This document shows positions 320 to 34,316 of a DNA stretch of 34,316 bases, piece by piece. The position numbers were made by a program, and so were the translations under genes. Below the pieces are notes generated by a model, which worked only from the letters and a program-made list of their open reading frames with translations, ran no database searches and had not been told where the DNA came from. The stretch's first letter is position 1. The number at the start of each line of letters is the position of its first letter. This DNA comes from a virus: IMG/VR virus record IMGVR_UViG_3300033146_001685, positions 1 to 34,316 of that record. One strand, given 5' to 3'.

Positions 320-787
320 TTAAGCGTCTGAAAATTTATCAATTGTACGTTGACGGTATTTTTTCATTCGTGTATAATAATCCGTTATAAAATCCTTCCA
401 CTCTTTTGCATCTGTATTTAATACCCATGCTGCGTTTATATAATATTTATCAAAGGTAACGATCCTCCAATCTTTTTTTAATAAATCCCATACTATTTTA
501 ATTTTTTTTCCAGTCGGTCCTTTTTTACCTTTTGGAGGTTTAAATCCAACTACTTTGTCATATTGGTTGATAAACGCCCAATTTGCAGTACATAACATAT
601 GTCTAGTCATATACTTATGCCCTGGTAATCCTGCATCTTTTGGTATATTTCTCCGTACAAACGATATTTCAATTACACTGTTTTGAAGTAAAAATGTAAT
701 ATCTTTCCAACTTAAATGAGTATTTTTATTTAATGCTGACTTAAATCGTTTATCTAATAAATATAAAGGCTGTTTTCTAAGACTCAT
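320..787 (-). CDS. Small basic protein, possibly WYL_2/DUF2693-like
   Basis: A 155-aa basic protein. Residues around 37-60 and the later stretch IKIVWDLLKKDWRIVTFD recall the small beta-barrel WYL_2 (DUF2693) proteins common in T4-like phages, which have a hydrophobic strand, then VxD...WRxF. That is recalled family knowledge and the match is loose. The ATG at 785-787 overlaps the end of the upstream gene by 11 bases and has no clear Shine-Dalgarno. A TATAAATA box lies 22 bases upstream (809-816), so the gene may be expressed late from a short leader. No catalytic motif is visible; the function is unknown. Confidence 0.6.
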   Translation of the reverse strand: MSLRKQPLYLLDKRFKSALNKNTHLSWKDITFLLQNSVIEISFVRRNIPKDAGLPGHKYMTRHMLCTANWAFINQYDKVVGFKPPKGKKGPTGKKIKIVWDLLKKDWRIVTFDKYYINAAWVLNTDAKEWKDFITDYYTRMKKYRQRTIDKFSDA

Positions 788-1067
788 ATTGTTTTAATGT
801 GTTTAAAGTATTTATAACTACTTCAATAGATTGAGTATGTAGTTTTAATGAAGAAGTTACGTTTTCTTTTCCATACCCCACATCAAACCAATATTCAGTA
901 TCAGTTTTTATACAAGTAATAATAAATTTAAACTGATCTTCACTTATTAACATCCAATATCGTGGATCTCCATCTCTAGAAAAATCTGATACTAACTCTT
1001 TAGTAGGTATACCGTTTTCACGTAATCGTTTTTTAAAATAACTTTTAGTGTACAACTTATTCTTCAT
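777..1067 (-). CDS. Hypothetical protein, 96 aa
   Basis: Not recognised. Two in-frame ATGs occur at 1073 and 1067. GGAGA directly abuts the first and sits seven bases before the second, so 1067 is the better start (MKNKLYTK...). The protein is mixed alpha/beta by eye, with a basic N-terminal 20 residues, aromatic residues in the middle (RYWMLI, EYWFDVGYG) and a C-terminal helix. It lies just downstream of the tmRNA and overlaps the next gene, so the two are probably translationally coupled. No signal peptide or membrane segment is seen. Confidence 0.6.
   Translation of the reverse strand: MKNKLYTKSYFKKRLRENGIPTKELVSDFSRDGDPRYWMLISEDQFKFIITCIKTDTEYWFDVGYGKENVTSSLKLHTQSIEVVINTLNTLKQYES
809..816 (-). 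promoter_or_regulatory. Candidate T4-type late promoter box TATAAATA
   Basis: An exact minus-strand TATAAATA 22 bases upstream of the ATG at 787, inside the 3' end of the preceding gene. T4 late promoters consist of essentially this octamer. In DNA this AT-rich, several exact copies are expected by chance, so position is the main support. Confidence 0.35.
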
Positions 1068-1084
1068 TATCATTCTCCATATAA

Positions 1085-1432
1085 TGGTGGACCTGTGGGG
1101 AATTGAACCCCAGTCTTATATTTAATCTAATATAATTTCATTCACATGTTTAGAAATTTTTGTTTATTAATTTAAGTAGTTTAGTACAATTAAATCTAAA
1201 ACTAATCTACTTGCAAGATAAAAATTTCAAAGTTAAAATTTATCTATTAATTAACTTCTACAGTAATAATTTGAACCAATTAAAGATATTACTATCTCTA
1301 AAAATGGTTGCAGCTTACGCTGCTAATGCAAAATCTTCTGCAATTATAGTTTACAGATTTTTTAAGAGGCCAACTGTAATCCTCTACATGCAATTAAATT
1401 TTCATAACTATAATCGAAACCTGGTCAGGCCC
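1085..1432 (-). ncRNA. ssrA: tmRNA (ssrA), one-piece, phage-encoded
   Basis: A complete 348-nt transfer-messenger RNA, which rescues stalled ribosomes and tags the nascent chain for proteolysis. The 5' end GGGCCTG pairs fully with the 3' CAGGTCC and is followed by an encoded ACCA. The third pair is G-U, the alanyl-tRNA synthetase identity element. A perfect T-arm (TGGGG, TTCAATT, CCCCA) precedes the acceptor strand. Near the 5' end, AGAGG pairs with CCTCT and TTACAG with CTGTAA in the arrangement of pseudoknot 1. The tag frame (1341 down to 1315) reads GCA GAA GAT TTT GCA TTA GCA GCG TAA, peptide AEDFALAA. The resume GCA aligns base for base with E. coli ssrA. The RNA lies 14 bases after the GroES-like gene. 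A plus-strand ORF across it is a shadow. Confidence 0.95.
1315..1341 (-). other. tmRNA tag-peptide reading frame (AEDFALAA-stop)
   Basis: The mRNA-like segment inside the tmRNA. It encodes eight residues, the first from the resume codon GCA, ending in ALAA followed by TAA. The hydrophobic ALAA end is the usual ClpXP/ClpAP-type degron. The tag is two residues shorter than the E. coli tag (ANDENYALAA), and the acidic ED pair replaces the NDEN region that binds SspB and ClpA. Confidence 0.85.
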
Positions 1433-1443
1433 ATTATTTTAAT

Positions 1444-1451
1444 TATTTATA
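1444..1451 (-). promoter_or_regulatory. Candidate late promoter TATAAATA for the tmRNA
   Basis: An exact TATAAATA on the minus strand, overlapping the TAA stop codon of the GroES-like gene and ending 12 bases before the mature tmRNA 5' end. T4 late transcription starts about six bases after the octamer, so a transcript would begin just ahead of the mature 5' end. A chance match in AT-rich DNA is possible. Confidence 0.4.
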
Positions 1452-1983
1452 TTTGTTTAGCAATAACATTTTCAATAGGAATAATTATATATTTAACTCC
1501 TTCATAAGTTAAATCAATATTACCTTCATTAAATACTAACACCTTATCTCCTATTTGTACATCATCATTTGTTAAAAATACACTTTTATTAACGATAGTA
1601 AGAAAAATATTAGTTCCTCTATTAACAGTAGGTATAAAAATACCTTTAATATTATCTGCACCTTCTTCTTCAACACACATAATAGTATCACCATATGAAT
1701 GTAATTTATTATCGTTTACTTTAGCTATAATATTTTCCATTTTAACCAATGCTTGATTGCCATGATCTCCAAAAGTAGACATTTCATCAAACATAATAGT
1801 ATCTCCAATTTGTATACCATTATTAACTTCATCTCCTATTTGAATAACTTTAGCCTTTAACACTGCACAATTATTTTTGTAACTATCTGGTACAAAAATA
1901 TTCCCTACTTTATCTTTTCTGCGTGTATCGATTTTTTCTAATAATACTAAATCGTTTAATACTTTCATAGATGTTTTTCCCAT
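1447..1983 (-). CDS. 31: GroES-like co-chaperonin (T4 gp31-like) with two tandem GroES folds
   Basis: A 178-aa protein that would cap the host GroEL chamber during capsid-protein folding, as T4 gp31 does. Two GroES-like repeats are visible. Repeat 1 (about residues 7-90) has LVLLEKI, GNIFVP, VIQIGDEV, GDTIMFDE and ends ENIIAKV. Repeat 2 (about 97-178) has DTIMCVEEE, IKGIFIP, IGDKVLVFNE and ends ENVIAKQI. Single GroES subunits are about 97 aa and T4 gp31 about 111 aa, so this protein is roughly double length. In repeat 1, NIFVPDSYKNN is the likely mobile loop that contacts GroEL. AAAGGAG lies well placed before the ATG. The upstream gene ends one base away and the tmRNA follows. Confidence 0.8.
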   Translation of the reverse strand: MGKTSMKVLNDLVLLEKIDTRRKDKVGNIFVPDSYKNNCAVLKAKVIQIGDEVNNGIQIGDTIMFDEMSTFGDHGNQALVKMENIIAKVNDNKLHSYGDTIMCVEEEGADNIKGIFIPTVNRGTNIFLTIVNKSVFLTNDDVQIGDKVLVFNEGNIDLTYEGVKYIIIPIENVIAKQI

Positions 1984-26612: not shown

Positions 26613-29120
26613 TTATTGTTTATCTAACCCTAAACAACTTATATTTTTACCATGTAAATGTTTCATTGCTATTCTAAAACTGTGTATAGTATCGAAAATA
26701 ATTGAAAATGCTCCGACGTGTTTCTTCATTTTCTGGTTTAGTCGTTGTATGTTCTTTAAATTTTCACCTTCTAATACATCAGTATCTGTAAATACAACAG
26801 TATTGAAATTTTTCTTATGTAATCCAATAGATATATCAATGAATTCTTTTCTAAAGTTAGTTCCTCCGCCAAATCCTCCAGTAAAAACTGCTTTCATAGG
26901 TTTAGATTTAGATTTAGATTTAGAATCAAATTCTTCGTTAATAATAGAGTTAGCATTAGTTAAGTTAGATGGAATAGTAGTAAATGTAAAGTTATCAGTA
27001 TCAATTACGCTAAAATCCCATGAACTATCAAATTTTAATATATAAAATTTGTCTAATGTGTTAGAATGGTCTTTAACCAATTTAAGTAAATCCACATACA
27101 CTTTATTTAATTCAGATATAACTGACCCTGAATTATCTATTATAAATAATATATTTTTCTTGTCATCTTTATACTCAACTTCTCCAGGTTTAAGTGCTCC
27201 AATTCCATTTAACTCAATTTGTTGAAGTGTTTGACCTGCTTTTCTTCTATTAATTTTAGCGTATGACGTAGTTTTGCGTACTCCAACAGTTAGCATATTA
27301 GATAATAACTTTTTCCAATCATATACTGGGGTATAGTTTTTATCTAATTGTTGTGATTTAGAATTACCTTTAGCCTTACGATTCATAGCATTGCGTAATC
27401 TATCTATCGTTGTAGAGTTTTTACTTGAATTTTTTCCACTATTTTTAGCTTCGTTTGCTTTTGCATCAACATTGGCTGGAGTAATACCTTCATTTCCTAT
27501 CTTACCTCTTTTTTTCATAGCTTCTGAAATTTCTTTAGTCGCTTTATCAATAGCGTCTTTAATCCGTTGTTTAACTGCATTATCTACATTGGTAATGTTC
27601 GGATCGTCTAATTCATCACTATTTCCTCTACCTTTTCCATCTTTTCCATCTTTTCCACTTGTTCCATCACTTTCTTCACCTTCTCCACTTGTTCCACCTT
27701 TTCCATCACTTTCTTCGCCTTCTCCACCTTTTCCATCACCTTCTTCACTTGTTCCACCTTTTCCATCACTTTCTCCACTTGTTCCATCACTTTCTTCACC
27801 TTCTCCACTTGTTCCACCTTTTCCATCACTTTCTTCACCTTCTTCACCTTCTTCACCTTCTCCACTTGTTCCACCGTTTGTATCTGTTGTGTTATCGTTA
27901 AGTTCTTCGTTTTGATGCTGATCGGTTTTTGGTAGTAAATTATCTGGATCTGTAACATTTGATGGTGATGGTGGTGATGGTGGTGTTATTTCATCTTCAT
28001 TTCCATCATCATCTTTAATTTTAACTTCTTCAATTTCATAAATCACATCTGGATCTAAAGGCGATGGAGGCTTGCCATTGCGGTTTTTTCCAATAGTAAC
28101 CTTAATTTTTTCCACTCTCTTTTTTGGTTGATTTTTTTGTTGGAGATCAATATCCCTTTTAGCTATTTCATATAATTCATGCATTGAATAATTATCACCA
28201 TTTAATTTAGAATTAAATATCCCTATTGGTAATTGTTCATACCCAGCTTGTACTAAATTATGGTTAATAATTAAATCTGCAGCTATATTTTGAGGAGCAT
28301 TATCTAAACCCATATGTTTACCATAAAAAATATCTCCTTGTTTAAAATGTAGTAATTCATGCATAATTAAAAATTGAATATACGCATACTCATCAGGTAT
28401 GTTTCCACCATTTGATACTAATGCAGATGAAGATGATGTTATTTTAGTAGCTCTACCATATCGTATTAAAGCTTTACAAAAGCTTTTATTAAATACTATT
28501 TCAGCGTTAACAGTAGCCATAGCAGTAGTACACATTTTAAATCTTTGAGGAGTTTTACCATCAATCTCACTGTATGGAACTATATGTATACTAGGGTATA
28601 TATTTTTTCCAGAAACTGGATCTTTTAATGGGAAAAACCCTTTTATTCCATCAGATTCTGCATATATATATTTTAATAATTTATCTTTTACTATAGAAGT
28701 ATCAAATATTATTTCGTCATCAAATAGTTCTTCAAACAATTGATATGCATCAAATACCACGCTACAAGCAACTTGGTTTAAACACTCACTGTATATTTTA
28801 GAATTTTTTATCATATCCTTGGATTTATCTAATCTAGCCTTTAACCAACTATCAACCGTTTCTTCAGTAATGACAGTGTCCTCAATATTAAGGGCTGTTA
28901 ACTTTCCATGACTTAACAAATCTAATATTGGTTTAATATTATTACTATTCTCGAGTTTATCAACAGTTATATCCACACCTACAATAGAATCTTTTAAATA
29001 TTTTACTGCATCCTTAATATACGCATCTGATAGTGAAGTTACTTTTCTATATTGTACGTTCCAAGTTTTAGCTTCAGTTAGTTGCATTTCAGCTAAATAT
29101 TGCAAAAATGTTAATTTCAT
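26613..29120 (-). CDS. Metallopeptidase-like (DUF2201) plus VWA-domain protein, partner of MoxR AAA+
   Basis: 835 aa. The N-terminal domain has LIMHELLHFKQGD (HEXXH at 254-258) and NIAADLIINHNL (278-289), the signature of DUF2201_N metallopeptidase-like domains. About 370-500 is low complexity, first acidic and proline-rich then Gly/Glu/Ser/Asp/Lys repeats. The C-terminal VWA domain has a MIDAS start NILFIIDNSGSVISE (656-670, DNSGS) and a later TDTD. Such VWA proteins work with MoxR-family ATPases to insert metals or remodel complexes (RavA-ViaA, CobS-CobT). The partner ATPase lies ten bases upstream. The N-terminus MKLTFLQYLAE resembles T4 capsid-targeting sequences. AAGGAGG precedes the ATG. 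Confidence 0.8.
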   Translation of the reverse strand: MKLTFLQYLAEMQLTEAKTWNVQYRKVTSLSDAYIKDAVKYLKDSIVGVDITVDKLENSNNIKPILDLLSHGKLTALNIEDTVITEETVDSWLKARLDKSKDMIKNSKIYSECLNQVACSVVFDAYQLFEELFDDEIIFDTSIVKDKLLKYIYAESDGIKGFFPLKDPVSGKNIYPSIHIVPYSEIDGKTPQRFKMCTTAMATVNAEIVFNKSFCKALIRYGRATKITSSSSALVSNGGNIPDEYAYIQFLIMHELLHFKQGDIFYGKHMGLDNAPQNIAADLIINHNLVQAGYEQLPIGIFNSKLNGDNYSMHELYEIAKRDIDLQQKNQPKKRVEKIKVTIGKNRNGKPPSPLDPDVIYEIEEVKIKDDDGNEDEITPPSPPSPSNVTDPDNLLPKTDQHQNEELNDNTTDTNGGTSGEGEEGEEGEESDGKGGTSGEGEESDGTSGESDGKGGTSEEGDGKGGEGEESDGKGGTSGEGEESDGTSGKDGKDGKGRGNSDELDDPNITNVDNAVKQRIKDAIDKATKEISEAMKKRGKIGNEGITPANVDAKANEAKNSGKNSSKNSTTIDRLRNAMNRKAKGNSKSQQLDKNYTPVYDWKKLLSNMLTVGVRKTTSYAKINRRKAGQTLQQIELNGIGALKPGEVEYKDDKKNILFIIDNSGSVISELNKVYVDLLKLVKDHSNTLDKFYILKFDSSWDFSVIDTDNFTFTTIPSNLTNANSIINEEFDSKSKSKSKPMKAVFTGGFGGGTNFRKEFIDISIGLHKKNFNTVVFTDTDVLEGENLKNIQRLNQKMKKHVGAFSIIFDTIHSFRIAMKHLHGKNISCLGLDKQ
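27651..27870. repeat. Imperfect tandem repeats encoding the Gly/Glu/Ser/Asp linker
   Basis: Degenerate 6-18-bp units (CCATCACTTTCTTCACCTTC, CACTTGTTCCACCTTTT) repeat here. The 60-base blocks 27661-27720 and 27781-27840 differ at a single base, so one was copied recently. The repeat is in frame with the VWA protein and likely changes in copy number by slippage or unequal recombination without breaking the frame. Confidence 0.85.
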
Positions 29121-29130
29121 TATATCCTCC

Positions 29131-31917
29131 TTATTTAAATAATTGACTAGCTATTTTATCGAATTTTGTCGAATTTCGTTCATGTAATAGAGTGTTTAAC
29201 GATTTAAAAAACTCCATAACTGATGTATCATGTGATTTAACTGTTTTTAACAAATCTATTCTAGTTTTTGTTGACAATGGTTTTAATATTTCTAAAAACA
29301 ATACAATTAATAATCTTGAAGTTATATCTGTTAAACTAACATTACTTATAAATGTTTTAACCTTACGTAATAACCGTATTGTATCATACAGATATATAAA
29401 TGTATCTGCTGTTGGCATATCTTGTATTTCTTTACCATGGAATATTGCTGCGTAATCTACTTGGAATTCATCTGTATTACGAGTGTCTATTAATAATTGA
29501 AAATATGCATTTAGTTTAGTTATTCCTTCTGGTGTATCTAATTTTTCAATTTTGTATTTAACATTTTTAAGTATATCGTTAAAAGATAATACTTGATTAG
29601 AAGTAACGTTTCTAATATCTTTAAAAACTGAAGAATTACGTATAACTTCTTGTACAATATCCCACCATAATTTAAATGCATTATCATCTACATCTTGTTT
29701 TCTTGTAATAAATAAAGTGTTTTGTCTCCATCTACGTATTATTCTTGTTTTTACTTTATCAATGATAAAATTAAATTCTTTGTCAGTATAATTCTCACTG
29801 ACATCGTATGGTATACCATCTTTTTCTTTACTTTGTAAAGCCTTCTTAGCAGCTACAACAGTTCCGATAAATAATGATTCAATTTCACGTGGTGATATAT
29901 ATACCGTTACTCCATTGATGTCCCAAAAATGAGGTTGGCTGATATTTGAAATGTTATCTCCGTTATGATCATATGATGATTTAAACCGTGTTGCAATTTC
30001 TTCAATTAAATCTAAACATAATTTAGGTAAATTAAATCCAAACTCAATTGGTAATGTTTTAAAATGTCCTTTAGTAATTGTTCTTCCTAGAAAATCTAAA
30101 GTTTTGTTAAAATCAGTTCCAACTTGTATTACATCAATTACATCTTTAGTATGTGAAGTAAGAGGAGTAACACCGACATCTCGAGGATTCATTGCGCTTA
30201 TAATCATAATATCTTCTGGTAATGGGAACTGATCATTAACTTTACGCTCTAACAACAACTTTCGTATTGAGTTAAATACTGATTCATCTTGCGGTCTAGT
30301 AATTTCATCTACAAATAATATATGATTATACGCAGCTTTACTTTTCTTAATTGATCTTTCTGGATGGAGTTTAACATATTTATTATAATTATCCATAATT
30401 AAATTATATAACGGTGGAGCAGTAAATTTAGTTTCTATAGTATCATCGTCTTTAGTTTCTGGAGTTGGTACTCCAATAACATCATCTTTATTAAGTTGTG
30501 ATATTTCAAATGATATTAAATTCATTCCTCTTTCTGTAGCTAATCTATCAACTGTCCAAGTTTTTGCTGCACCTGGCAAACCTGCTAAACTAACTGTGTA
30601 TTGTCGATTATTTCTTGCTTTAAGTTGAGTATCAATAGAATTGTCTAACATTATTTCCCATTCATTATCTTGAAGCGGTGTTAGTTTGGTTATATCAACC
30701 CCATCGTTTTTAGCTATATCTTTTAATATTTTCATAAAAGGCTTGACTCGTGAAGATACGTCTAATGTAATATAGTTTTGTAAATTAGTTTCAATATACT
30801 TCATTAATGCTCTAGCTTGTTGATCGGTTTTTATTGGACGGTTATTTTCAATATATACCATCATTTGTTCAACTCTTCTTGGTGACATACGAACAACTGC
30901 TCCTTCACCTTCTACTGTATCATCGTTAAACCCAAAATCTTCATCTTTTAAATGTTTATAAAAACTATTAAATACTAATGCAGACATTTCGTTATCATCT
31001 TTATTTTTAGTTACTAATTTACCATTAACCTCTTTACCATTTTTAGTATATTTGTCTAATATATATTGACTAAATTCATCTTTAGATGGAGCAAAAAATT
31101 CCATATCTAGCATTTGATAATTTAAAGGAATATCATCAATAGAACCGTTATCACTTTCATTACTAGCTATATTAGAAGCGTATACAAAATATACTGATGA
31201 ATCAATTTTATCAACTCCCATACGTTTATTTAACAACTGTCTAAGTAAGTTTTTCATTTTTGGTGAAGAAGTTCTATAAAATTCATCAATAAATAATATA
31301 ACAGTGTATTTAGATTTATCAACATCTTTATTATTAACTAGTTCATTTATTATATCTTCGTATTTATCTCGTAACCGTTTACCAGTTGGAGTTAATGCAT
31401 CTTGAATTTCTTTATCACTTAATGGTTTAGCTTCTTTTAACATTCTAGCTAAATACGATGTTGATAGTTTAACATCGTATCCTTTAGCAATATTTTTGTC
31501 ATAAGTAGTATATTTATGTTTTTCTTTTTTACCAATTTGTACAAGAAATGGAAGGTTAACTAAATGTTCTTCTACTAAATGAGGAGCTTCAATCATTATT
31601 AATGGCAAACCTACGATATTAGCAAATTGTTTTATAAAACTAGTTTTGCCAGTTCCAACATCTCCAGATAATATTATTCTTCCTTTATCTCCAAGTAATG
31701 CAGATTCCATATTATCTAATAAATCTACCAATCTACGTTCGCCTTCACCTTCTACTTTACTAGGCAAAGTATATTCTTCAACATTTATTTTATCTATATC
31801 TGATATTTTAGTATCTTTTCCTTCCTTACCTTTGATTTTATCAGCTTTGTTTTTTAATTGTTTTTCTACAGAAGATTGTTTACCTTCCATTATATCAGTG
31901 ATTAAATTTTTTATCAT
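29131..31917 (-). CDS. Double MoxR-type AAA+ ATPase, 928 aa
   Basis: Two AAA+ modules in one chain. Module 1: Walker A GDVGTGKT (85-92), Walker B ILFIDEFYR (207-215), SPRRVE (345-350) in the sensor 2 region. Module 2: Walker A GLPGAAKT (446-453), Walker B ILFVDEITRP (533-542), sensor 1 MIISAMNPRD (571-580), ISPREIE later. The last 230 residues are helical. MoxR proteins normally have one module of about 300-500 aa, so the fused pair is unusual. It probably remodels a target selected by the VWA/metallopeptidase protein encoded directly downstream. The target is unknown. AAGGA precedes the ATG two bases after the upstream gene. Confidence 0.85.
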   Translation of the reverse strand: MIKNLITDIMEGKQSSVEKQLKNKADKIKGKEGKDTKISDIDKINVEEYTLPSKVEGEGERRLVDLLDNMESALLGDKGRIILSGDVGTGKTSFIKQFANIVGLPLIMIEAPHLVEEHLVNLPFLVQIGKKEKHKYTTYDKNIAKGYDVKLSTSYLARMLKEAKPLSDKEIQDALTPTGKRLRDKYEDIINELVNNKDVDKSKYTVILFIDEFYRTSSPKMKNLLRQLLNKRMGVDKIDSSVYFVYASNIASNESDNGSIDDIPLNYQMLDMEFFAPSKDEFSQYILDKYTKNGKEVNGKLVTKNKDDNEMSALVFNSFYKHLKDEDFGFNDDTVEGEGAVVRMSPRRVEQMMVYIENNRPIKTDQQARALMKYIETNLQNYITLDVSSRVKPFMKILKDIAKNDGVDITKLTPLQDNEWEIMLDNSIDTQLKARNNRQYTVSLAGLPGAAKTWTVDRLATERGMNLISFEISQLNKDDVIGVPTPETKDDDTIETKFTAPPLYNLIMDNYNKYVKLHPERSIKKSKAAYNHILFVDEITRPQDESVFNSIRKLLLERKVNDQFPLPEDIMIISAMNPRDVGVTPLTSHTKDVIDVIQVGTDFNKTLDFLGRTITKGHFKTLPIEFGFNLPKLCLDLIEEIATRFKSSYDHNGDNISNISQPHFWDINGVTVYISPREIESLFIGTVVAAKKALQSKEKDGIPYDVSENYTDKEFNFIIDKVKTRIIRRWRQNTLFITRKQDVDDNAFKLWWDIVQEVIRNSSVFKDIRNVTSNQVLSFNDILKNVKYKIEKLDTPEGITKLNAYFQLLIDTRNTDEFQVDYAAIFHGKEIQDMPTADTFIYLYDTIRLLRKVKTFISNVSLTDITSRLLIVLFLEILKPLSTKTRIDLLKTVKSHDTSVMEFFKSLNTLLHERNSTKFDKIASQLFK

Positions 31918-32558: not shown

Positions 32559-33419
32559 CTACTTTCTTAATTTTTCTCTTATTGGAAGTTCTAGTTTAGT
32601 TGGAACACCTACTAAACTATCTCCTAGCATAATATTAATTTCTTTAATACCTTTCATTAATTTAAACAACCCATGAGGTTCTATTGAAGAACTTTGATCA
32701 GTTCCATATAATGTATGGCTTTCAGTTATATGCACTTCTAAATATTCAGCTCCTAATAAAGGTGCAATCATAGGTGCACTTAATCCAAAACAATGATTAG
32801 AATATCCTATTTTATAATTAGGATATTTATGTTTTAATGCAACCATCCTATTTAAATTTACATCTTCTATTGGAGTTGGGTATGAACTATTAGTATGCAT
32901 AATTATGATACGGTTGTTATATTTAGAAATTTCATTTATAGCGTTATCTATTTCAGTTAATTTAGACATTCCAGTACTTATTATAACCTTTTTAAAATTA
33001 TTAGCACAAAACTTAATTAGTTCTAAATCACAAATAGATGCGCTTGCTATTTTTACCCATGGTAAATTAAAGTTATCAGCTAAGAACATAGCAGAATCAA
33101 CATCCCATGGGCTTGCACTCCATTCTATATTTTTTTCTTTACAATATTTATCGATTTCAATATACTCTAGTATACCAAATTCAACATCTTTTTTATATTG
33201 TAAATAGGTAGTAGTTTCATTTCTCCAAGGTACATCACGTGGTTGAACTTTTTGTAGTTCAGGTACACATTTTTCTGGGTTCCTTTTTTGAAATTTAACT
33301 GCATCACAACCTGATGATTTTGCGATATCAATTAATCTTTTAGCATTAGTTAGAAATTCGGTTTGAGATACCCCATACGCAAAATTCAACCCAATTTCAG
33401 CAATTACATAAGTATTCAT
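32559..33419 (-). CDS. neuB: NeuB-family nonulosonic (sialic) acid synthase, barrel domain only
   Basis: 286 aa. It would condense phosphoenolpyruvate with a six-carbon amino sugar to make a sialic-acid-like nine-carbon sugar. VIAEIGLNFAYG (5-16), DAVKFQKR (39-46), WSASPWDVDSAMFL, VKIASASICDLELI, ISTGMS, HTNSSYPTPIEDVNL, IGYSNHC and EVHITESHTLYGTDQSSSIEP are the NeuB barrel signatures, including the metal-binding His residues. Bacterial NeuB is about 340-350 aa and ends in a SAF (antifreeze-like) domain that helps close the active site; here the chain stops after the barrel. The next gene upstream but one looks like a sialyltransferase. GAGG precedes the ATG, which overlaps the previous stop (TAATG). 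Confidence 0.88.
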   Translation of the reverse strand: MNTYVIAEIGLNFAYGVSQTEFLTNAKRLIDIAKSSGCDAVKFQKRNPEKCVPELQKVQPRDVPWRNETTTYLQYKKDVEFGILEYIEIDKYCKEKNIEWSASPWDVDSAMFLADNFNLPWVKIASASICDLELIKFCANNFKKVIISTGMSKLTEIDNAINEISKYNNRIIIMHTNSSYPTPIEDVNLNRMVALKHKYPNYKIGYSNHCFGLSAPMIAPLLGAEYLEVHITESHTLYGTDQSSSIEPHGLFKLMKGIKEINIMLGDSLVGVPTKLELPIREKLRK

Positions 33420-34099
33420 TAGTTATCCTCGTTTAAATATTCGATCATATATTCTATTAATTGGTTTAATACTATAGTAGGAACTTTAGCAATTTCCATA
33501 TATGCGTGTAAAGTAGCTGACTCCTCAAGACCATGTTTAGTTTTAATTTTCTTTAATATATCTGAATTAGTATATTTAAGTCGTTGAAGTTCTCTAACCG
33601 CAGTATTTGCAAAAGCCATAATTTCATACGGATCAGAAAGATAATTGACAAATCCTTCAAGCGTAGTATAATTAGATTTATTCATCCTTTTTGATACGAA
33701 TTTATCATATTTTTCTGCAGACATAGATTCTCGTGTTTGCCGAAATTGTTCTCTATGTATTAATTCATGTTCAATATATGTTAATAATAATATGTTAAAA
33801 GACACCCATCCATCTTCATCTGTTAATAATGAATCAATGTTTTGGGCAAGTAATATACTGATCGACCCAAATTCTCCAGTAAATGCATCTAATAATTTGT
33901 CATTATTAAAAAAATAAGGTTTAACAGATATATTAAATTTACTTAATATATTATTTAAAGTTTTCGCTATCGTTATAGAAGATTTGCCTATCATACTAGA
34001 TTTATGTTGATTAATAACTTTTCTGATATCATCTATAAGATGTTTATCAACATGTATAGTACTTTCATCAAGTAGTGTTAATAATTGGTTGAATTTCAT
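33419..34099 (-). CDS. HEXXH metallopeptidase-like protein
   Basis: 226 aa. LLTYIEHELIHREQF places a zinc-binding HELIH at 111-115, and YLSDPYEIMAFANTAVREL (from 153) supplies a likely third ligand, Glu159, in the D.YEIMAFA pattern of small phage-encoded peptidase-like proteins. The N-terminus MKFNQLLTLLDE followed by Ser resembles T4 capsid-targeting peptides cut by the prohead protease after (L/I)xE. If so, it is a virion-packaged protein. The target is unknown. AAGGA precedes the ATG, and the sialyltransferase-like gene ends directly before it. Confidence 0.6.
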   Translation of the reverse strand: MKFNQLLTLLDESTIHVDKHLIDDIRKVINQHKSSMIGKSSITIAKTLNNILSKFNISVKPYFFNNDKLLDAFTGEFGSISILLAQNIDSLLTDEDGWVSFNILLLTYIEHELIHREQFRQTRESMSAEKYDKFVSKRMNKSNYTTLEGFVNYLSDPYEIMAFANTAVRELQRLKYTNSDILKKIKTKHGLEESATLHAYMEIAKVPTIVLNQLIEYMIEYLNEDN

Positions 34100-34316
34100 T
34101 TATATTATCCTTATATTTTTATTATTGTTTATAAAATTTTTTTCTAAATCCATTCTATGGTCAGCTCCTACTTTTTCTGTCTTATGCTCTCCATAATAAT
34201 GATTAGTATTTCCACCTACTTTACAATCGCTGAATAAATCAAATCCAGTTATTGTAACTTCTTTAAACTTCTTAAGAGCATAACCAATAGTATATATGCC
34301 ACTTGTGCAATAAGTA
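34100..34316 (-). CDS. Sialyltransferase-like glycosyltransferase, C-terminal part (cut by window edge)
   Basis: The last 71 codons of a gene that enters from the right edge, ending with TAA at 34100-34102. The fragment has CTSGIYTIGYALKKFKEV, then TITGFDLFSD, NHYYGEH and a terminal helix DHRMDLEKNFI. The SG...YAL..FKEV..TGFD and HYYG order resembles C-terminal parts of bacterial and phage GT29/GT42-type sialyltransferases, which move sialic acid from CMP-sialate. Family choice is uncertain on this fragment; the nearby NeuB supports it. Confidence 0.5.
   Translation of the reverse strand, partial: TYCTSGIYTIGYALKKFKEVTITGFDLFSDCKVGGNTNHYYGEHKTEKVGADHRMDLEKNFINNNKNIRII

What the first reader, a model, noticed from the sequence alone, without database searches (positions are those of the whole stretch)
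1085..1432. A phage carries its own complete tmRNA with an eight-residue tag AEDFALAA
The acceptor stem with G3-U70, T-arm, pseudoknot 1 and tag frame are all intact, so the RNA should be charged with alanine and active. The tag is shorter than in E. coli and more acidic just before ALAA, possibly altering adaptor or protease choice. A phage-owned rescue RNA could redirect degradation of truncated proteins late in infection, when mRNA is being cleaved.
Basis: partly seen in the sequence, partly recalled or inferred. Interest (0 to 1): 0.7.

Follow-up and report, generated by a model that had tools for sequence, protein, structure and literature searches.

The report
Phage tmRNA behind a late-promoter-like box
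This T4-like virus of bacteria carries a complete gene for tmRNA, the RNA that frees stuck ribosomes and tags half-made proteins for destruction; such viral copies are already known, but this one sits in an unusual spot, just behind a protein-folding helper gene and a sequence that looks like a late-infection switch.

Summary
Window 1432-1085 (minus strand) is a full-length one-piece tmRNA: ARAGORN calls it with tag AEDFALAA, and Rfam RF00023 scores it 89.1 bits against a cut-off of 47. G3-U70, T-arm, tag hairpin and four pseudoknots are all present; PK2-4 beat 300 of 300 shuffles. Phage tmRNAs are a known kind: about 2% of sequenced phages have one (PMC9004378), and one pattern found more than 120 stretches in IMG/VR. 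Eight-residue tags are not rare (11 of 111 here), and the tag is no more acidic than E. coli's. What is added here is context. The contig is a T4-like phage fragment. The tmRNA lies 14 nt behind a GroES-like co-chaperonin gene, with a perfect T4 late-promoter box (TATAAATA) overlapping the GroES stop codon. A distant T4-like phage (L047/L157) has the same layout, spacing and box, but a different tag. IMG/VR tmRNAs preceded by this box are enriched in T4-type phages (8/15 versus 2/35). This indirectly supports late expression. No SmpB gene lies in the fragment, so host SmpB is probably used. The host is unknown, so redirected proteolysis cannot be judged. New member of a known kind.

The parts
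1085..1432 (-). one-piece tmRNA (ssrA) gene, 348 nt, CCA encoded
   Evidence: ARAGORN; Rfam RF00023 89.1 bits, full length; fold z -3.5
1315..1341 (-). tag reading frame GCA GAA GAU UUU GCA UUA GCA GCG UAA = AEDFALAA*
   Evidence: ARAGORN coding part 92-118
1426..1432 (-). 5' strand of acceptor stem GGGCCUG, containing G3 of the G3-U70 pair
   Evidence: helix 1-7/338-344
1085..1112 (-). T-arm, 3' strand of acceptor stem CAGGUCC and ACCA end
   Evidence: sequence; Rfam alignment
1351..1385 (-). pseudoknot 1 (AGAGG/CCUCU and UUACAG/CUGUAA)
   Evidence: sequence; second helix listed
1310..1323 (-). tag-end hairpin GCAGC-GUAA-GCUGC with the stop codon in the loop
1262..1309 (-). pseudoknot 2 (AACCA/UGGUU, UUAGAGA/UCUUUAA, AGUAAUA/UAUUACU)
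1216..1258 (-). pseudoknot 3 (GAAGUUAA/UUAACUUU, AGAUAAA/UUUAUCU)
1167..1212 (-). pseudoknot 4 (AAGUAG/CUACUU; second helix UUAAUU/AAUUAA or an alternative register)
   Evidence: the register of helix 2 is ambiguous
1444..1451 (-). TATAAATA, perfect match to the T4 late-promoter box, ending 11 nt before the tmRNA and overlapping the GroES stop codon
1447..1983 (-). GroES-like co-chaperonin gene (178 aa); its stop codon ends 14 nt before the tmRNA
   Evidence: phrog_3188 E 5.9e-12; PF00166 38.8 bits, cut-off 21.1
777..1073 (-). next ORF downstream (98 aa, unknown), starting 11 nt after the tmRNA
320..787 (-). second downstream ORF (155 aa, unknown), with its own TATAAATA 29 nt upstream (816)

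Best explanation
A T4-like phage carries a complete one-piece tmRNA. Host alanyl-tRNA synthetase charges it, and host SmpB with EF-Tu delivers it to ribosomes stalled on broken mRNAs. It then adds AEDFALAA, whose LAA end marks the product for ClpXP-type proteases. It is transcribed by read-through from the co-chaperonin gene and, most likely, from a T4-type late promoter (TATAAATA) that overlaps the end of that gene, so its level should rise late in infection. Shown: the gene, its structure, its place in a phage operon, the late-promoter box, and the same layout in a second T4-like phage. Inferred: charging, use of host SmpB, late transcription, tagging.
For: Gene and structure. Phage context: T4-type polymerase, topoisomerase II subunits, helicase, UvsX-like recombinase and holin on the same strand. 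The tmRNA sits inside a gene run, 14 nt behind GroES and 11 nt before the next ORF. Same layout in L047/L157 (record G020, polymerase 31% identical): GroES stop, 14 nt, tmRNA with tag ANDSNYEQAIAA, 15 nt, next ATG. In both phages TATAAATA overlaps the GroES stop codon and ends 11 and 15 nt before the tmRNA. Fifteen further IMG/VR tmRNAs with the box 6-20 nt upstream: 8 of 15 records carry a T4-type polymerase (phrog_262), against 2 of 35 tmRNA records not chosen for the box, Fisher p 4e-4; p 0.0012 when only loci under 40% GC are compared. No SmpB in the window, and none in the tmRNA-bearing records over 46 kb that were searched; the 7 hits are on records of 7.7 to 46 kb.
Against: No host, no transcript, no protein data. 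The window is 27% GC and holds 7 TATAAATA boxes on this strand, fewer than the roughly 12 expected by chance, so the box alone proves little; its support comes from position and recurrence. The GroES-tmRNA pairing was seen in two phages only. Host SsrA stays abundant during T4 infection of E. coli (PMC9697503), so a phage copy is not obviously needed. Genes for gp55/gp33, which T4 late transcription requires (own knowledge), were not recognised in this fragment.
Confidence: 0.62

Rival explanations
1. Early-acting recycler: the tmRNA is made early by read-through of the replication-gene operon and helps clear ribosomes from decaying host mRNA, freeing ribosomes and amino acids. The TATAAATA box is a chance match or secondary.
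For: It lies on the same strand as, and downstream of, replication genes. In Melnitz the tmRNA lies behind an early promoter and an early role was proposed (PMC9004378). AT-rich DNA makes TATAAATA common.
Against: The box is at the same place in a second T4-like phage, and the box is enriched before tmRNAs of T4-type phages.
Confidence: 0.22
2. Competitor or decoy: the phage tmRNA mainly displaces host tmRNA from SmpB and ribosomes, replacing the host tag by one that host adaptors handle differently, so that some truncated proteins escape or are rerouted.
For: The tag lacks the N-terminal segment bound by E. coli SspB (own knowledge). A TLD-only tmRNA exists in a related T4-like phage (L232), like mycobacteriophage DS6A; a similar molecule strongly inhibits tmRNA (PMC4131195).
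Against: This RNA keeps a complete tag frame and all pseudoknots, which a pure decoy would not need; the ALAA end is retained.
Confidence: 0.1
3. Inert or transient passenger: a tmRNA captured from a past host with no selected function in this phage.
For: Phage tmRNA occurrence is patchy; the topoisomerase relatives searched lack a one-piece full tmRNA.
Against: All structural elements are intact in a 28% GC sequence that has diverged to about 56% or less identity from all compared phage tmRNAs; no sampled bacterial species shares the tag in a one-piece tmRNA; operon placement recurs.
Confidence: 0.06

Closest known systems
One-piece bacterial tmRNA (Rfam RF00023)
   Same: Architecture, alanine identity pair, pseudoknots, tag ending ALAA
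   Different: Phage-borne, 28% GC; 8-residue tag not found in any one-piece tmRNA of the 84,980-species genome scan
Phage-encoded tmRNAs (mycobacteriophage Bxz1 group, Bacillus phage G, huge phages; PMC4131195, PMC7162821)
   Same: Complete tmRNA in a phage genome; Bacillus phage G's was re-found here at 67.6 bits
   Different: This one lies between a GroES-like gene and small unknown ORFs, behind a T4 late-promoter box
Two-piece (permuted) tmRNA of T4-like marine phage Melnitz and relatives (PMC9004378)
   Same: tmRNA inside an operon of a T4-type phage
   Different: Here one-piece; no riboswitch family matched in the window; the upstream box is late-type rather than early
L047/L157, unnamed T4-like IMG/VR phage (IMGVR_UViG_3300033155_000819)
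   Same: GroES, then 14 nt, then one-piece tmRNA; TATAAATA over the GroES stop codon
   Different: Tag ANDSNYEQAIAA; tmRNA about 52% identical; GroES 119 aa instead of 178 aa

Membership tests
tmRNA (RF00023) | Covariance score above the curated cut-off, full length | tested here: met
   89.1 bits against 47, model 1-374
tmRNA (RF00023) | tRNA-like domain with G3-U70 and T-arm, CCA end | tested here: met
   helix 1-7/338-344 with G3-U342; T stem read from the sequence
tmRNA (RF00023) | Tag reading frame ending in a hydrophobic, Ala-rich C-terminus and a stop codon | tested here: met
   AEDFALAA*
tmRNA (RF00023) | Four pseudoknots | tested here: met
   PK4 helix 2 has two possible registers
tmRNA (RF00023) | Aminoacylation, SmpB binding, trans-translation activity | not testable with these tools
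   needs biochemistry
phage-encoded tmRNA | Lies inside a phage genome, not at a prophage/host junction | tested here: met
   one contig with T4-like replication genes; flanked by a GroES-like gene and operon ORFs; no integrase among the protein families matched and no SmpB neighbour
T4 late promoter | TATAAATA just upstream of the transcribed unit | tested here: met
   1451-1444, minus strand
T4 late promoter | Use by gp55/gp33/gp45 late transcription | not testable with these tools
   these genes were not recognised in the fragment; needs RNA 5'-end mapping

The most novel reading that the evidence does not exclude
Some T4-type phages carry a conserved, late-expressed protein quality-control cassette: a co-chaperonin gene whose stop codon overlaps a late promoter that drives the phage's own tmRNA. 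Folding help and ribosome rescue would thus be switched up together when capsid proteins are made in bulk.
Probability: 0.3. Interest if true: 0.5.

Novelty: new member of a known kind. Interest (0 to 1): 0.3.

Why it matters
Phage tmRNAs have been listed for years, but I found no test of when they are made or what they do for the phage. A late-promoter box at the same place in two distant T4-like phages, next to a co-chaperonin gene, gives a simple timed prediction for any cultivated T4-like phage with a one-piece tmRNA: the RNA should rise with the late genes.

Tried and rejected
Close relatives by nucleotide: none in INPHARED. Host by tag: the exact-tag scan of 84,980 species and of IMG/VR gave no one-piece tmRNA, only permuted tmRNAs whose tags end in AEDFALAA (L005, L007). 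Host by phage kinship: topoisomerase large subunit about 50% identical to Campylobacter phages over 71% of its length, but polymerase and recombinase point elsewhere, so the host is left open. SmpB as a partner on tmRNA phages: the 7 SmpB hits among 50 tmRNA records are on records of 7.7-46 kb and look like host DNA around tmRNA integration sites (not followed gene by gene), so they were not counted as phage SmpB. GroES adjacency as a general rule: rejected; only the window and L047 show it among the tmRNA loci examined. Structure of the GroES-like protein: AlphaFold without an alignment failed (pLDDT 29). Relatives by GroES or topoisomerase peptides: none or self only; a topoisomerase alignment found 40 relatives, none with a one-piece full tmRNA in the 37 records searched.

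Full report
What is there. ARAGORN finds one RNA gene in the window, a tmRNA at 1085-1432 on the minus strand with tag AEDFALAA. Rfam agrees: RF00023, full model length, 89.1 bits, cut-off 47. The acceptor stem carries the G3-U70 pair, the T-arm and CCA end are intact, PK1 has both helices, the tag ends in a hairpin with the stop codon in its loop, and PK2-4 each have two complementary helices in the right order. Because the sequence is AT-rich, chance helices are common, so I tested the three downstream pseudoknots against dinucleotide shuffles: none of 300 did as well. My scan required a first helix of at least 6 bp, so it did not score PK1, whose first helix is 5 bp; PK1 rests on the sequence and the Rfam alignment. 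The whole RNA also folds better than all 100 shuffles.

Where it lies. The record is a 34-kb virus fragment. Its genes are those of a T4-type phage: gp43-type polymerase, both topoisomerase II subunits, DnaB-like helicase, UvsX-like recombinase, RusA-like resolvase, a single-strand DNA-binding protein match and a holin, all on the minus strand. The tmRNA is inside this run: 14 nt after the stop codon of a GroES-like gene and 11 nt before the next ORF. No integrase is seen among the matched families and no SmpB gene lies on the fragment, so this does not look like a prophage junction.

A recurring layout. Among the tmRNA-bearing IMG/VR records examined with the window's polymerase, one, L047 (record G020), has a clear relative of it (31% identity). 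It carries GroES, then 14 nt, then a one-piece tmRNA, then 15 nt, then the next ATG. Its tag is different (ANDSNYEQAIAA) and its tmRNA is only about 52% identical. In both phages the eight bases TATAAATA, the T4 late-promoter box, overlap the GroES stop codon and end 11 or 15 nt before the tmRNA. From the box density in each sequence the chance of a box within 30 nt upstream is about 0.6% in the window and 0.5% in L157; these estimates were made after seeing the boxes.

A less post-hoc test. A collection scan for tmRNA starts with TATAAATA 6-20 nt upstream gave 29 stretches, 16 of which are tmRNAs by ARAGORN (15 new plus L047). Of the 15 new records, 8 carry a T4-type polymerase (phrog_262), against 2 of 35 tmRNA records not chosen for the box; Fisher p 4e-4, and p 0.0012 among loci under 40% GC. 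Some of the 15 are near relatives of each other (L177/L184, L181/L188, L167/L171), so the independent number is smaller; the comparison set was also drawn with a slightly different tmRNA pattern. With these limits, the box in front of tmRNA goes with T4-type phages, as a real late promoter would.

How ordinary it is. The literature counts 402 of 18,146 phage genomes with tmRNA (PMC9004378) and names mycobacteriophages and Bacillus phage G (PMC4131195); huge phages also have them (PMC7162821). The tag's novelty is slight: no one-piece tmRNA in an 84,980-species genome scan has it, but its letters end the tags of two permuted tmRNAs (L005, L007).

Relatives carry other tmRNA types. Forty T4-like loci related by topoisomerase were found. 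The 37 records of these that were searched hold no one-piece full tmRNA, but G092 and G115 carry permuted tmRNAs of beta type, G117 one of alpha type, and G093 (L232 1501-1606) a 106-nt RNA that is only the tRNA-like domain. This suggests repeated gain or remodelling of tmRNA among T4-like phages.

Function. Most likely host AlaRS, EF-Tu and SmpB serve it, it rescues stalled ribosomes, and the LAA end leads to ClpXP. None of this is shown here. A caution: host SsrA stays abundant in T4-infected E. coli (PMC9697503), so the phage copy may matter only in hosts or stages where host tmRNA is limiting.

Noticed in passing
L232 1501-1606 (+), record IMGVR_UViG_3300007983_000016: A 106-nt tmRNA with only the tRNA-like domain (G3-U70 kept, no tag frame, no pseudoknots, CCACCA end not encoded) in a T4-like phage; resembles the TLD-only RNA of mycobacteriophage DS6A.
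   Followed up: partly
window 1447-1983 (-): The GroES-like protein is 178 aa, nearly twice the usual length; residues 5-90 match Cpn10 and residues 139-175 weakly match the GroES C-terminal part, so it may be a tandem or inserted GroES. Structure prediction failed.
   Followed up: partly
L233 1184-1612 (-), L235 1276-1595 (-), L234 1614-1957 (-): Permuted (two-piece) tmRNAs of beta and alpha type in T4-like phages related to the window by topoisomerase (tags ANDESYRIAA and ANSENYALAA in the first two).
   Followed up: partly
window 32559-34315 (-): Sialic-acid synthase (NeuB, PF03102), a 226-aa ORF, and at the contig end a fragment matching sialyltransferase family GT29 (PF00777, E 1.3e-6): a possible surface-sugar module in a phage.
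   Followed up: no
window 26613-31917 (-): A 928-aa protein with two AAA+ ATPase matches next to an 835-aa protein with a metallopeptidase-like match (DUF2201_N) and a low-complexity GEGEESDGKGGTS stretch; looks like a MoxR-type ATPase with its partner.
   Followed up: no
L005 3159-3491 (+) and L007 4582-4926 (+): Permuted tmRNAs whose tags end in AEDFALAA (ANDNFAAEDFALAA, ANDNTAEDFALAA): the window's whole tag equals their last eight residues.
   Followed up: partly
window 816-809 (-) and 32364-32357 (-): Two more TATAAATA boxes lie about 28-29 nt upstream of ORF starts (787 and 32336); with the tmRNA box that makes 3 of the 7 on this strand at gene starts.
   Followed up: no
L181, L188, L164, L179 upstream of the tmRNA: A shared TTCTTTGA/ATCTTTGA-like motif directly before the tmRNA 5' end in several phage tmRNAs that also have TATAAATA; meaning unknown.
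   Followed up: no
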